Assembly: GCA_029257405.1 (NCBI GenBank)
Contig: JARIBO010000066.1
Coordinates: 41,128-105,127, forward strand
From: Caryophanales bacterium
GTDB taxonomy: Bacteria > Bacillota > Bacilli > Bacillales > Amphibacillaceae
DNA length: 64,000 bases
Direction: 5' to 3'
Position 1 is the stretch's first letter. Every line of letters begins with the position of its first letter. This document shows positions 29,396 to 58,260 of this stretch, one piece after another. Position numbers and translations under genes: made by a program. The notes under the pieces are model-generated. The model did not search any database. It had not been told where the DNA came from and was given only the letters and a program-made list of their open reading frames with translations.

Positions 29396-30355
29396 TTAGT
29401 TATCTAGATATCGATCAATATATTCATTTATTTTATTTTGATAAGCTTTCTTTTCAATTATATAAGACTCGCCATGCCCCGCATTGTCAACAGTAAACGT
29501 TTCATAGTCACTCGCTGTTTCTTTACTTAATTTAAGTGCCATATGAGTCGGGACAAATGTATCTTGTTTTCCGTGAATATAAAGAATCGGTATTGACGCT
29601 TTTTTAACTTGGTTTTTAGTAGAAGCTTCTGTTAATGAATAACCTGCCCTAATTTTTGTAACAACACTAAGTGTTGGTAAGATTGGTTTACCTGGTAAAT
29701 TATACATTCGTTTCATTTGATAGGCGAACATATCATATACTGAAGTGTATGGGCTATCTGCAATAATTAATTTAACTTGTTCTGGCAACTTTTCTCCACT
29801 CGCCATCAGCATGGCTGAAGCACCCATAGATAAACCGTGTAAAACTATCTCTACATCTTTACCTTCCTTTTCAATTAGCACATTTAACCAATCTATAATA
29901 TCTAAACGGTCGTGCCAACCAAAACCATAATAATCTCCCTCACTTTTGCCATGACCTCTTAAGTCTGGAGTGAAAAGATTAAAATCCAGCTCTTCATGGT
30001 AATATTGACCAAAAAAACCCATGTCTTTTGCAGCTCCTAAATAACCATGAGCAAAAACAACTAACTTTTTTGATTTTTCTTTAGCTGGTAAATAATATCC
30101 TTGTAAATTTAAATTATCATAAGATTGCATTTCAAGCTTTTCAAAATCTTGATTATCTGTCCATATAACCCAATCGCCATTTAAGAATTCACCTAAAATT
30201 TCTGGGGCTACTTCTAAATCTTCGTTATTTTGTAAATATTCTTTTGGTCCTCTTTTAATAACTAAATTGTAAAAAAATACGCCTACTAGACTATTAATCG
30301 TAAAGACAATGACTATTATACTAATTAACCATTTTAAAAAACTTTTTCTTTTCAT
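29396..30355 (-). CDS. Membrane-anchored alpha/beta hydrolase
   Basis: A 319-residue serine hydrolase with an N-terminal membrane helix (residues 10-31). The fold motifs are FAHGYLGAAKDMGFF (oxyanion region) near 104, nucleophile elbow GLSMGASAM near 173, Asp in HGKQDTFVP near 264 and His in NAGHGES near 292. This arrangement is common for BAAT/FrsA-like surface esterases of Bacillales; the substrate is unknown. It lies 57 bp after the SAM-hydrolase gene with no obvious terminator between, so it may also be under the upstream T-box. Confidence 0.87.
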   Translation of the reverse strand: MKRKSFLKWLISIIVIVFTINSLVGVFFYNLVIKRGPKEYLQNNEDLEVAPEILGEFLNGDWVIWTDNQDFEKLEMQSYDNLNLQGYYLPAKEKSKKLVVFAHGYLGAAKDMGFFGQYYHEELDFNLFTPDLRGHGKSEGDYYGFGWHDRLDIIDWLNVLIEKEGKDVEIVLHGLSMGASAMLMASGEKLPEQVKLIIADSPYTSVYDMFAYQMKRMYNLPGKPILPTLSVVTKIRAGYSLTEASTKNQVKKASIPILYIHGKQDTFVPTHMALKLSKETASDYETFTVDNAGHGESYIIEKKAYQNKINEYIDRYLDN

Positions 30356-30412: not shown

Positions 30413-31261
30413 TTATTTATCTGCTTTTTTTATTTCGATTTTCCAATTGATTCCTGTTTCAACATGATATGCTTGAGCAAATGAACCTTGATTAATCGCT
30501 ATACCCATCGAGTCTACAGAATTAACAAATAGTATTGCTTCTCCTAAACGGCTATCTGCAAAAGAACGACCATAACTTATTCTGTTTTTAAATATTTGGC
30601 GATCATTTTTAATTATTGTTACTTCTAATAAATCACCAAAATTAACACCAATCGAAAGAAACAACTCTCTTCCGATATTAGTCCAAATGTTACCAAATCT
30701 AACGTCTAAGATATCTATTTTTCCATAGACAACGCCTGAATCAATGTAAGGCTTTGGATTATGGAGTGTGATAATTGATGTTAACTCTAACTCAGGTCCT
30801 ACCTGCTCAAAAGAAATAACACCTGAGGCAAGTCTTGCTCCTGTATATGCGTATACATCACGACCATGAAAAGTATATGATGCTCCTGAATGAGGTAATC
30901 GATTCACCTCTTCATCTATTTCTCGAATTGATTGAATACCAACTTCCCCTGCAATATGTGTCAGTGTACCGTTATTTGGTGTAATAATATATTGGTTTTC
31001 ATTTGTTTTTACAACAACGCTTTTGCGGTCAGAACCGACTCCTGGATCGACGACTGAGACAAATACTGTTTCTTCAGGCCAATATGTCATCGTTTGATAC
31101 AAGCGATAAGAGGCTTCCCAAATATTATATTGTGGAATTTCATGGGTTAAATCAAAGATCCCAAGATTTGCATCAACATTTAAGGCAACGCCATACATCG
31201 CACTCACTGCACCATCTGATAAACCAAAATCTGTTTGTAATACTAATTTTTTAGTCAACAT
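30413..31261 (-). CDS. SAM hydrolase family protein (DUF62, SAM:hydroxide adenosyltransferase)
   Basis: A 282-residue member of the fluorinase/chlorinase/SAM-hydrolase superfamily. Signs are LQTDFGLSDGAVSAMYG at the N-terminus, VFVSVVDPGVGSDRKSVV near 67, ITPNNGTLTHIAG near 92 and FHGRDVYAYTGARLASG near 130. Family members in non-halogenating bacteria hydrolyse S-adenosylmethionine to adenosine and methionine. The gene directly follows a T-box leader read here as methionine-specific. This suggests the enzyme is made when Met-tRNA is uncharged, releasing methionine from SAM. That link is inference; the ATG at 31261 follows AAAAGGATG. Confidence 0.9.
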   Translation of the reverse strand: MLTKKLVLQTDFGLSDGAVSAMYGVALNVDANLGIFDLTHEIPQYNIWEASYRLYQTMTYWPEETVFVSVVDPGVGSDRKSVVVKTNENQYIITPNNGTLTHIAGEVGIQSIREIDEEVNRLPHSGASYTFHGRDVYAYTGARLASGVISFEQVGPELELTSIITLHNPKPYIDSGVVYGKIDILDVRFGNIWTNIGRELFLSIGVNFGDLLEVTIIKNDRQIFKNRISYGRSFADSRLGEAILFVNSVDSMGIAINQGSFAQAYHVETGINWKIEIKKADK

Positions 31262-31277
31262 TAATCATCCTTTTTGT

Positions 31278-31558
31278 TTAAACATAAAAAAACACGCCTC
31301 TACCGATTATCATCGATAAGGACGTAGTAATATAAACGTGGTACCACCTTAATTCACTGTATTCACAGTCTTTACTTGTACGAAAGCATAAAGCTTTTAT
31401 ACTGTGGTAGTTGATAACGGATACCAATTCCCGTTGCTGCTTACTCATACTTTTTTCAGCAGAAGACTCTAAAGACCATTTCAACTTCTTATTTTTTACT
31501 TCTTTTCACCATACGAAGCTCTCTTTTAAAAAATAATGAAATTTACTATCCTTTGTCT
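31278..31558 (-). promoter_or_regulatory. T-box riboswitch, methionine specifier
   Basis: The conserved T-box AAGGTGGTACCACG is at 31350-31337. A terminator hairpin (ACGTCC...GGCGT with seven T, about 31325-31285) follows. Stem I has the expected parts: GGATAGTAA bulge side, distal AGAGAG and TATGGTGAAAA loop. The upper stem (AATTTC with GAAGTT) leads into a specifier loop GAAATGG, placing codon ATG at 31479-31477. UGGU in the antiterminator bulge predicts discriminator A73, as in tRNA-Met. It regulates the SAM-hydrolase family gene starting 17 bp downstream. Confidence 0.9.
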
Positions 31559-31635
31559 ACATCTTTAATATATTTTTAATGTTTTTAGATTAGTTAATAT
31601 TATACGTAGTGATTTCACGTAAAGCAAATTTAACT

Positions 31636-56813: not shown

Positions 56814-56895
56814 TACCAGTGGCCGGGATCGAACCGGCACTCCCTAAGGAACGGGATTTTGAATCCCGCGTGTCTGCCAATTCCACCACACTGGC
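56814..56895 (-). tRNA. tRNA-Leu(CAA)
   Basis: Cloverleaf with acceptor GCCAGTG/CACTGGT, a long variable arm and anticodon loop TTCAAAA. No encoded CCA. Last gene of the cluster. Confidence 0.92.
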
Positions 56896-56952
56896 TAGTA
56901 TATTAATTTTAAAGATAAAAAAACCACCAGCATTTGCTTGGTGAAAAGAATA

Positions 56953-57026
<74 letters not shown>

Positions 57027-57097
57027 AATTATAAAGAAATTGGCTTTGCCACCAATTATTAAAAAACTTGACTTAATCGCCATTAAATAAATTAAAA

Positions 57098-57169
57098 AGC
57101 GGAAGACGGGATTCGAACCCGCGACCTCCACCTTGGCAAGGTGATATTCTACCGCTGAACTACTTCCGC
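57098..57169 (-). tRNA. tRNA-Gly(GCC)
   Basis: Acceptor GCGGAAG/CTTCCGC with discriminator T, anticodon loop TTGCCAA; no encoded CCA. Confidence 0.94.
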
Positions 57170-57177
57170 ATAATAAG

Positions 57178-57248
57178 CTGGGCTACAAGGATTCGAACCT
57201 TGGATGACGGGACCAAAACCCGTTGCCTTACCGCTTGGCTATAGCCCA
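57178..57248 (-). tRNA. tRNA-Gln(TTG)
   Basis: Acceptor TGGGCTA/TAGCCCA, discriminator G, anticodon loop TTTTGGT; no encoded CCA. Confidence 0.94.
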
Positions 57249-57260
57249 ATATAATAAATG

Positions 57261-57335
57261 GGGCGACCGAAGGGATTTGAACCCTCGAGTGCCGGAGCCA
57301 CAATCCGGTGCGTTAACCGCTTCGCCACGATCGCC
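57261..57335 (-). tRNA. tRNA-His(GTG)
   Basis: The extra 5' G (position -1) faces C73, as required for HisRS. Anticodon loop TTGTGGC. No encoded CCA. Confidence 0.94.
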
Positions 57336-57374
57336 ATTTAAACTAAGTGCAAATATAAATTCAAGGTTACTTGA

Positions 57375-57445
57375 CAGGGGTAGAAGGATTCGAACCCTCA
57401 TCGACGGTTTTGGAGACCGGTATTCTACCATTGAACTATACCCCT
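57375..57445 (-). tRNA. tRNA-Trp(CCA)
   Basis: Acceptor AGGGGTA/TACCCCT, discriminator G, anticodon loop CTCCAAA. Confidence 0.94.
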
Positions 57446-57457
57446 ATTTAATAAGAG

Positions 57458-57539
57458 TGGTGGAGGGCAGATTCGAACTGCCGAACCCGTTGGGAGCGGA
57501 TTTACAGTCCGCCGCGTTTAGCCACTTCGCTACTCCACC
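57458..57539 (-). tRNA. tRNA-Tyr(GTA)
   Basis: Acceptor GGTGGAG/CTCCACC, class II variable arm, anticodon loop CTGTAAA. Confidence 0.94.
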
Positions 57540-57568
57540 ATGTTTTTATATTTAATTGCTTTATAAAG

Positions 57569-57641
57569 TGGCTCAAGACGGAATCGAACCGCCGACACAA
57601 GGATTTTCAGTCCTTTGCTCTACCGACTGAGCTATTGAGCC
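57569..57641 (-). tRNA. tRNA-Phe(GAA)
   Basis: Acceptor GGCTCAA/TTGAGCC, anticodon loop CTGAAAA. In many Bacillales a tRNA-Thr follows here; none does. Confidence 0.94.
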
Positions 57642-57652
57642 CTATACAATTA

Positions 57653-57726
57653 CGATCCGGACGGGACTCGAACCCGCGACCTCCAGCGTGACAGGCTGGC
57701 ATTCTAACCAACTGAACTACCGGACC
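57653..57726 (-). tRNA. tRNA-Asp(GTC)
   Basis: Acceptor GGTCCGG/CCGGATC, discriminator G, anticodon loop CTGTCAC. Confidence 0.94.
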
Positions 57727-57791
57727 ATATATATTTAATAATACTTTAAATTCTATATTTTGCAAACAATTTAATACATAGAATAAAAAAT

Positions 57792-57868
<77 letters not shown>

Positions 57869-57874
57869 GTGTAA

Positions 57875-57950
57875 TGGTGGAGGATGACGGGCTCGAACCG
57901 CCGACCCCCTGCTTGTAAGGCAGGTGCTCTCCCAGCTGAGCTAATCCTCC
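57875..57950 (-). tRNA. tRNA-Val(TAC)
   Basis: Acceptor GGAGGAT/ATCCTCC, anticodon loop CTTACAA, CCA encoded. Confidence 0.94.
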
Positions 57951-57976
57951 ATAAAATATCTGGTTTATTAAATTAT

Positions 57977-58051
57977 TGGTGACCCGTACGGGATTCGAAC
58001 CCGTGATACCACCGTGAAAGGGTGGTGTCTTAACCGCTTGACCAACGGGCC
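57977..58051 (-). tRNA. tRNA-Glu(TTC)
   Basis: Acceptor GGCCCGT/ACGGGTC, anticodon TTC in CCCTTTCACG, CCA encoded. Confidence 0.94.
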
Positions 58052-58092
58052 ATTTATGTAATAATGGCATAAATTCTATATCTTTTCAAGAA

Positions 58093-58181
58093 CGGAGAGC
58101 AAGGGATTTGAACCCTTGAGACCGTAATACGGCCTACATGATTTCCAATCATGCTCCTTCAACCAGCTCGGACAGCTCTCC
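58093..58181 (-). tRNA. tRNA-Ser(GGA)
   Basis: Class II tRNA with long variable arm; acceptor GGAGAGC/GCTCTCC, discriminator G, anticodon loop TTGGAAA. Confidence 0.94.
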
Positions 58182-58185
58182 AAAT

Positions 58186-58260
58186 TGGCTCCACAGGTAG
58201 GATTCGAACCTACGACCGATCGGTTAACAGCCGATTGCTCTACCACTGAGCTACTGTGGA
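58186..58260 (-). tRNA. tRNA-Asn(GTT)
   Basis: Acceptor TCCACAG/CTGTGGA, discriminator G, anticodon loop CTGTTAA, CCA encoded. First gene of the cluster behind a strong promoter. Confidence 0.94.

What the first reader, a model, noticed from the sequence alone, without database searches (positions are those of the whole stretch)
30413..31558. Methionine T-box controlling a SAM-hydrolase family gene
The leader has all T-box parts, and the specifier loop reads GAA-ATG-G. UGGU in the antiterminator predicts A73 as in tRNA-Met. The gene behind it belongs to the family that hydrolyses SAM to adenosine and methionine. Together this suggests a rescue circuit: when Met-tRNA is uncharged, the cell recovers methionine from SAM. 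Control of this family by a T-box would be an unusual use of the switch.
Basis: partly seen in the sequence, partly recalled or inferred. Interest (0 to 1): 0.75.

Follow-up and report, generated by a model that had tools for sequence, protein, structure and literature searches.

The report
Methionine T-box controls a SAM hydrolase
In this relative of Bacillus, an RNA switch predicted to sense uncharged methionine tRNA sits directly in front of a gene of the SAM-hydrolase family, so that running short of methionine would likely make the cell break down SAM to get methionine back; the same pairing is found in many other Bacilli.

Summary
Window 31568-31315 (minus) is a complete T-box (RF00230, 108 bits, E 5.5e-23), 53 nt before a 282-aa gene with both SAM_HAT domains. 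AUGG stands at the specifier in all 60 leaders I read beside orthologues, and UGGU in the antiterminator in 56. Met is clear for the family; in the window alone, spacing would also allow UGG (Trp). No other T-box of the 18 in this genome precedes a Met gene; six SAM riboswitches guard Met and SAM synthesis. A T-box adjoins the gene in 35 of 45 related genomes that have it. The enzyme keeps Asp-Arg-His (the recalled hydrolase triad).
(2) In much of the class the gene adjoins an ECF importer (25 of 33 genomes with a strong S component), pointing to uptake and cleavage of SAM or a relative; the window's genome lacks a close copy of that S component. Activity, epimer preference and induction are untested.

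The parts
31599..31627 (-). promoter-like site: TTGCTT (31627-31622), 17 nt, TATAAT (31604-31599)
   Evidence: picked by eye, coordinates; the consensus scan does not list it (only 3 of 6 match in the -35), so weak
31315..31568 (-). T-box leader RNA (RF00230, full length 1-219)
   Evidence: 108.3 bits, gathering 93, E 5.5e-23
31544..31547 (-). AGUA motif, 5' side of the specifier loop
   Evidence: sequence; aligned to the family consensus
31550..31554 (-). 5' strand (AAAGG) of the helix next to the specifier loop
   Evidence: can pair with UCUUU 31475-31471, the pair nearest the loop being G-U (reading of the sequence)
31477..31479 (-). specifier codon, most likely AUG, followed by G (31476)
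   Evidence: AUGG here in 60 of 60 leaders read; spacing in the window itself would also allow UGG 31478-31476
31471..31475 (-). 3' strand (UCUUU) of the helix next to the specifier loop
31337..31350 (-). T-box sequence AAGGUGGUACCACG of the antiterminator; UGGU bulge at 31346-31343 predicted to pair with the tRNA NCCA end
   Evidence: tRNA-Met in the window ends A73-CCA, tRNA-Trp has G73
31286..31325 (-). intrinsic terminator hairpin (31325-31293) and U7 tract; its 5' arm overlaps the 3' arm of the antiterminator
   Evidence: (-15.3 kcal/mol, z -3.74); not flagged by the stricter scan
30413..31261 (-). SAM_HAT (DUF62) family gene, predicted SAM hydrolase, 282 aa; D72, R79, H132
29396..30355 (-). 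alpha/beta hydrolase gene 57 nt downstream, possibly co-transcribed; not a conserved partner

Best explanation
A T-box leader whose specifier most likely reads AUG (Met) stands directly before a gene of the SAM-hydrolase (SAM_HAT/DUF62) family, and is predicted to let the gene be transcribed when tRNA-Met is uncharged, so that the enzyme would likely release methionine and adenosine from SAM when methionine is short. Shown by sequence and comparison: the complete T-box, AUGG at the specifier, the UGGU antiterminator, the terminator, the family and its conserved Asp-Arg-His, and the recurrence of the pair across Bacilli. Inferred from the known T-box mechanism: uncharged tRNA-Met pairs with AUG and UGGU, holds the antiterminator and lets the polymerase pass; charged tRNA leaves the terminator. 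Inferred from characterised relatives: SAM + H2O gives methionine + adenosine. A rationale (inference): this genome places its Met and SAM synthesis genes under SAM riboswitches, which open when SAM is low; a SAM-consuming enzyme under such a switch would be induced just when SAM is scarce. A T-box senses methionine apart from SAM, so it can open when Met is short while SAM, or its useless (R,S) epimer, or SAM from outside, is still there.
For: RF00230 E 5.5e-23. AUGG at the specifier in 60 of 60 leaders read: 35 aligned, 13 more, 12 more; L048, L088 and L124 by eye because scripts missed or misplaced them. AUG 9 bases before the [GA]AG that ends stem I in 56 of 60 (54 by script, 2 by eye), the place of the cognate codon in 10 of the genome's 17 other T-boxes. 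UGGU in 56 of 60; tRNA-Met in the window A73, tRNA-Trp G73. The other 17 T-boxes of the genome precede aaRS or biosynthesis genes of other amino acids (by eye); six SAM riboswitches precede metN/metQ-type genes (three), a metI-type operon with metE, a metY-type gene and metK (names by eye except metE). PF01887+PF20257; D72/R79/H132 in 54 of 59 T-box-bearing proteins (some genomes counted twice); AF2 model pLDDT 91.4, best PDB match 2zbu at TM 0.89, then chlorinases, fluorinases and PH0463. T-box beside the gene in 35 of 45 relatives. Met was assigned independently to the Listeria leader (PMC2494555, passages).
Against: No expression or enzyme data. In the window itself the specifier spacing is 10, which alone would favour UGG; local sequence and spacing resemble the genome's own second trpE leader L004. 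Seven of the genome's 17 other T-boxes do not fit the 9-base ruler at all. The base after AUGG cannot pair with the facing base in about 16 of 60 leaders (5' GAGA against CCUC/CCUU or ACUC), so helix pairing does not settle the codon. The protein scores far below the NCBIfam cut-offs for the two named (R)-SAM hydrolases (123.9 of 350; 117.6 of 470). Ten of 45 relatives have the gene without a T-box, among them the nearest, an 80%-complete MAG (84% identity), which keeps only a terminator-like hairpin. 13 of 25 class-sample loci and all 13 of the Clostridium and other loci put to Rfam have no detected T-box. H132 is Tyr or Phe in 5 of 59 T-box-bearing proteins. Cleaving one's own SAM wastes the ATP that made it.
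Confidence: 0.57

Rival explanations
1. The enzyme mainly acts on SAM (or a SAM-like nucleoside) taken up from outside: the T-box turns on a scavenging system of which the ECF importer is the other half, and the window's species has lost or displaced the importer.
For: ECF S component, fused ATPase and T component directly follow the gene in many Bacilli and Clostridium and flank it in Anaerolineae and a Spirochaetales MAG; 15 of 45 relatives have S adjacent, all 15 with a T-box, 0 of 10 without T-box (Fisher p 0.019 uncorrected); class sample: 25 of 33 genomes with a strong S hit have the gene next to it.
Against: No close S component in the window's genome; its PF07155 hits are weak and in other surroundings. 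The 20 relatives with T-box but no adjacent S have no S hit anywhere. Counted by kinship the link of S and T-box is not significant. Substrate of the importer unknown; NCBIfam calls it riboflavin. No T-box near S where the gene is absent: 0 of 8 and 0 of 2 loci.
Confidence: 0.2
2. Housekeeping: the enzyme clears the inactive (R,S)-SAM epimer; methionine gain is a by-product and the T-box merely links the clean-up to Met status.
For: StDUF62 prefers (R,S)-SAM, and the solved MJ1651 entry 22uy is named (R)-SAM hydrolase.
Against: A clean-up enzyme needs no Met sensor; the T-box is kept over many genera. Authors of PMC12120602 themselves doubt this role for StDUF62.
Confidence: 0.1
3. The specifier in the window is UGG and this copy of the switch senses tRNA-Trp.
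For: UGG is also invariant, one base further on; in the window it, not AUG, lies 9 bases before the GAG, and the genome's second trpE T-box L004 reads GAA-UGG-U-CUUA-U-GAG much like the window.
Against: In 56 of 60 leaders of the same gene AUG lies at 9; the window's helix AAAGG/UCUUU can simply be one pair longer; UGGU where L004 has UGGC; Trp has G73. But L017, the other trpE leader, has UGGU.
Confidence: 0.09
4. The gene is a halogenase (chlorinase-like) rather than a hydrolase.
For: Fold matches chlorinases better than PH0463.
Against: Asp72-Arg79-His132 kept, whereas the three Actinobacterial relatives have Tyr-Thr/Ala-Tyr there; the solved SalL mutant Y70T fits Tyr as a chlorinase mark.
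Confidence: 0.02

Closest known systems
Methionine-specific T-box riboswitches (e.g. metE-metF, yxjH, metQ leaders of Lactobacillus paracasei, PMC6004538, passages seen)
   Same: T-box architecture, ATG specifier
   Different: known targets make or import methionine; here the target is predicted to release it from SAM
lmo2587 leader of Listeria (Wels et al. 2008, PMC2494555 Table 2, passages seen)
   Same: Met T-box on what is, by its place between fdhF and mdrT (lmo2588), the same gene family
   Different: listed as 'Met related cytosolic hypothetical'; no SAM-hydrolase link in the passages I saw
SAM hydroxide adenosyltransferases / (R)-SAM hydrolases: PH0463 (1wu8, 2wr8), MJ1651 (2f4n, 22uy), StDUF62, T. 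maritima 2zbu
   Same: both Pfam domains, fold, Asp-Arg-His; 35% identity to 2zbu in the structural alignment
   Different: a ~282-aa branch below the NCBIfam equivalog cut-offs; RNA-switch control and ECF neighbour in relatives
ECF transporters with PF07155 S components (PRK13661, labelled riboflavin)
   Same: S + fused A-A' + T gene order in relatives; predicted fold of S like FolT, RibU, ThiT
   Different: no solved sequence relative; bound in gene order to the SAM hydrolase; absent beside the window's gene

Membership tests
T-box leader (RF00230) | full-length covariance-model match above the curated score | tested here: met
   108.3 vs 93 bits, positions 1-219 of 219
T-box leader (RF00230) | T-box sequence with UGGN bulge, and a competing terminator before the gene | tested here: met
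   AAGGUGGUACCACG at 31350-31337; hairpin + U7 at 31325-31286
T-box leader (RF00230) | responds to uncharged tRNA | not testable with these tools
   needs in vitro antitermination or a reporter
Methionine-specific T-box | AUG at the codon place of the specifier loop, in the family of orthologous leaders | tested here: met
   AUGG in 60 of 60; AUG 9 bases before [GA]AG in 56 of 60
Methionine-specific T-box | AUG at the codon place in the window's own leader | tested here: inconclusive
   AUG at 10, UGG at 9; helix AAAGG/UCUUU would keep AUG+G
Methionine-specific T-box | UGGN fits the discriminator of tRNA-Met | tested here: met
   UGGU vs A73 of the initiator-type tRNA-Met in the window; U could also face G73, so supportive only; the elongator tRNA-Met was not looked up
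SAM_HAT / DUF62 | PF01887 and PF20257 above gathering score | tested here: met
   175.3 and 68.6 bits
SAM hydrolase activity | Asp-Arg-His triad (recalled from work on PH0463) | tested here: met
   D72, R79, H132; an Arg of MJ1651 was mutated in 22uy (R89A, title)
SAM hydrolase activity | SAM + H2O to adenosine + methionine | not testable with these tools
   needs purified enzyme
(R)-SAM hydrolase equivalogs NF058624, NF053629 | score above curated cut-off | tested here: not met
   123.9 of 350 and 117.6 of 470 bits; so not filed as that equivalog
SAM hydrolase + ECF importer module | ECF S-A-T genes beside the gene | tested here: not met
   absent in the window and no close S component in the genome; present in 15 of 45 relatives

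The most novel reading that the evidence does not exclude
A SAM-scavenging module: a Met T-box, a SAM hydrolase and a dedicated ECF importer whose PF07155 S component takes up SAM (including its dead epimer) from the surroundings; methionine starvation turns on both uptake and cleavage to methionine and adenosine. The window holds a stripped-down version without the importer. It would give DUF62 hydrolases a physiological role and add SAM to the list of ECF substrates.
Probability: 0.3. Interest if true: 0.78.

Novelty: new variant of a known kind. Interest (0 to 1): 0.56.

Why it matters
[quoted passage not shown] A recurrent Met-tRNA sensor on the gene is independent evidence that, in Bacilli, the role is methionine supply, and it gives a simple test. 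It also suggests a genome that splits its two sensors by direction of flux: SAM riboswitches on Met and SAM synthesis, a Met T-box on SAM breakdown. The linked ECF importer names a candidate SAM transporter.

Tried and rejected
Trp reading of the specifier: taken seriously because UGG is equally invariant; disfavoured, not excluded, for the window (speaks for UGG in the window alone, against it in the family). Confidence in the best explanation was lowered slightly and that of the Trp rival raised. Helix pairing as proof of the codon: given up, since about 16 of 60 leaders cannot form the pair next to the G. Automatic specifier finding was wrong for the window and L088 and for L088; let G-U pairs shift the register, so from it I use only the UGGN counts and the listed letters; the UGGN letters are partly wrong sites. 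L048, L088 and L124 were read by eye. Purine after the codon: only a tendency in this genome's T-boxes (by eye), not used as proof. Calibrating with Trp leaders by a DNA pattern was too unspecific (92 of 101 genomes matched, list cut) and not followed. A second pattern hit 15 of 101 genomes; 14 are leaders of this gene by place, one (L186, G071) showed no T-box on reading nor in Rfam. The stem-I energy alone is weak (z -1.90). The alpha/beta hydrolase as a partner: found near the gene only in a few loci of close kin. Importer and T-box: Fisher 0.019 but not significant when kinship is counted. The terminator scan missed the T-box terminator, so its silence downstream of the gene means little. 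Literature: T-box with SAM hydrolase, S-adenosylmethionine hydrolase, hydroxide adenosyltransferase, COG1912: 0 papers each; mixed-term search: 1 paper, listing only, which holds neither enzyme term. RegPrecise paper PMC3766115 (passages): no COG1912 or hydrolase in the main text. Vitreschak 2008, Gutierrez-Preciado 2009, Rodionov 2004 and 2009 are not held and supplement look-ups are capped at 0 here, so an earlier listing there cannot be excluded.

Full report
What is there. On the minus strand a T-box leader (31568-31315) matches RF00230 over its full length with 108.3 bits, E 5.5e-23. A gene of 282 codons follows at 31261-30413 with both domains of the SAM hydroxide adenosyltransferase family, PF01887 and PF20257. 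A terminator hairpin with a U7 tract (31325-31286) stands between them, and its 5' arm is shared with the antiterminator's 3' arm. A TATAAT with a weak -35 ends 30 bases upstream of the leader (picked by eye).

Which amino acid. The 3' strand of the specifier loop reads GAA-AUG-G, then the helix. The codon could be AUG (Met) or, one base on, UGG (Trp). I read 60 leaders of the same gene: 35 in the alignment (window included), 13 more including Listeria and E. faecium and 12 from a class-wide sample. All 60 have AUGG at this place; L048, L088 and L124 were read by eye. As a ruler I took the distance to the [GA]AG that ends stem I. In this genome's other 17 T-boxes, whose amino acid is known from the gene, the cognate codon lies exactly 9 bases before it in 10 (ileS, serS, cysE, both trpE, tyrS, hisS, valS, proC, ilvB); 7 do not fit. 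In the 60 leaders AUG lies at 9 in 56 (54 by script, L088 and L124 by eye), at 10 in three (the window, L031, L036) and at 8 in L025. So the family reads AUG. The window itself is the awkward case: its spacing would fit UGG, much like the second trpE leader L004. I still read AUG, because the window can form a helix one pair longer (AAAGG/UCUUU, with G-U next to the loop) that leaves AUG-G in place, because it carries UGGU where L004 carries UGGC, and because its orthologues read AUG. The antiterminator has UGGU in 56 of 60; the others are UGGA (L033, L069), UGGC (L032) and UGAU (L048). tRNA-Met in the window (initiator type) has A73 and tRNA-Trp G73. UGGU is supportive only: L017, the other trpE leader, also has it. 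The helix after AUGG comes as GAGG/CCUC, AAGG/CCUU, UAGG/CCUA, GGGG/CCCC, AAAG/CUUU and GAGA/UCUC, which supports the stem; but in about 16 leaders the base next to the G cannot pair, so pairing does not decide the codon.

Place in the genome. After an uncultured Bacillaceae MAG, the nearest named kin are Pseudogracilibacillus. Rfam finds 18 T-boxes in the genome. By eye the other 17 precede ileS, serS, cysE-cysS, trpE (two in tandem), tyrS, hisS, valS, proS, serC, thrS, pheS, proC, proB, ilvB, glyQ and alaS. Six SAM riboswitches precede three metN/metQ-type transporters, a metI-type operon that includes metE (PF01717), an O-acetylhomoserine lyase-like gene and metK (names by eye). So, as far as Rfam sees, the SAM hydrolase gene is the only one here under a Met T-box. 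I infer the logic: a SAM riboswitch would turn on SAM breakdown when SAM is low, while a T-box reads methionine alone.

Conservation. Of 101 related genomes 45 have the gene. All 45 loci were examined and 35 have a T-box directly upstream: the window, 17 of 18, 14 of 16 of L038-L053 (L048 weak, 39 bits) and 3 of 10. Of 78 named loci 21 have one by a profile built from these leaders; 13 of the remaining 57 were also put to Rfam and had none at the gathering score. Several of the 78 are the same genomes as among the 45. In a class-wide sample of 299 genomes 36 have the gene; 25 new loci were examined and 12 have a T-box, 7 of these below the gathering score. On a quick tree of 81 proteins the T-box label needs 9 changes, against 25.7 for shuffled labels; near-copies alone would make it cluster, but it fits an old trait lost several times. 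The nearest relative, G006 (80% complete, 84% identity), shares the upstream cytochrome gene but has no T-box; a terminator-like hairpin remains at the matching place.

The enzyme. The model (pLDDT 91.4) matches T. maritima 2zbu best (TM 0.89), then chlorinases, fluorinases and PH0463, the SAM hydroxide adenosyltransferase. D72, R79 and H132 stand where, as I recall, PH0463 has its catalytic triad; 113 of 123 family members keep all three, and the three Actinobacterial sequences keep none. Five of 59 T-box-bearing proteins have Tyr or Phe for His. The protein is far below the NCBIfam cut-offs of the two named (R)-SAM hydrolases, so I file it in the family, not in that equivalog.

The importer. 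In many relatives the gene is followed by an S component of about 185 aa (PF07155), a fused ATPase of about 570 aa and a T component. In 15 of 45 relatives an S component lies within the 1.5-kb flank, always with a T-box; 20 have a T-box without it and 10 have neither. A search of all 101 genomes for S gave 18 hits, 17 strong: those 15, and two genomes without the gene. In the class sample 46 of 299 genomes have an S hit, 33 of them over 150 bits, and 25 of those 33 have the gene right next to it by coordinates. Of 78 named loci 29 hold an S homologue within the fetched flanks, among them Clostridium, Anaerolineae and a Spirochaetales MAG. An E. faecium plasmid carries T-box, gene and importer together. 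Where S occurs without the gene no T-box was found (0 of 8, Rfam; 0 of 2, motif only). The window's genome has no close S component. NCBIfam names this S component a riboflavin transporter; no solved relative is found by sequence, and the predicted fold is about equally like FolT, RibU and ThiT, so its substrate is open.

Prior art. Wels et al. 2008 (PMC2494555, passages seen) list lmo2587 with a Met T-box as 'Met related cytosolic hypothetical'. In a Listeria record the SAM_HAT gene lies between fdhF and mdrT; mdrT is lmo2588 (PMC10294697, passages seen), so this gene is lmo2587 by order (inference), and its leader is a T-box with AUG-G. No paper found joins a T-box with this enzyme family; the big surveys are not held.

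Verdict. Observation confirmed; Met specificity firm for the family and likely for the window's own leader; enzyme family certain, activity likely; physiological role (methionine recovery from internal or imported SAM) inferred. PMC12120602 (parts 1 and 2 of 3 read) states that the role of such hydrolases is unsettled, which is where this finding matters.

Noticed in passing
window 60864-60766 (-): TPP riboswitch, 81 bits.
   Followed up: no
window 34452-34273 (-): 6S RNA, 79 bits.
   Followed up: no
window 56814-58260 (-): Cluster of 14 tRNA genes, including an initiator-type tRNA-Met and tRNA-Trp.
   Followed up: partly
window 31479-31466: The window's specifier spacing (10 instead of 9) and local sequence resemble the genome's second trpE leader (L004); either a longer helix or drift of the codon register.
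   Followed up: partly
L020 upstream of the gene (G006): The nearest relative has no T-box but keeps a terminator-like hairpin at the matching place.
   Followed up: partly
L200 (E. faecium plasmid NZ_CP034950.1): Met T-box, SAM hydrolase gene and ECF importer together on a record typed as mobilizable.
   Followed up: partly
L095, L096, L097, L099, L101, L102, L104, L105, L107, L112, L116, L125, L131, L137; also L114, L117, L119, L121: Two SAM_HAT paralogues close together (second copy about 43-51% identical to the query), on one strand in the first group and divergent in the second; in some of the first group beside ECF genes and an M20 dipeptidase-like gene.
   Followed up: no
L063, L060/L091, L106, L108: Catalytic His replaced by Tyr or Phe in T-box-bearing members.
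   Followed up: no
L048 1105-1282: Decaying T-box without a proper stem I and with GGUGAUACC in the antiterminator.
   Followed up: partly
L195, L196: Two very similar PF07155-bearing gene groups on different contigs of the own genome.
   Followed up: no
L060 2497-2598: A SAM riboswitch lies just downstream of the T-box-controlled gene.
   Followed up: no
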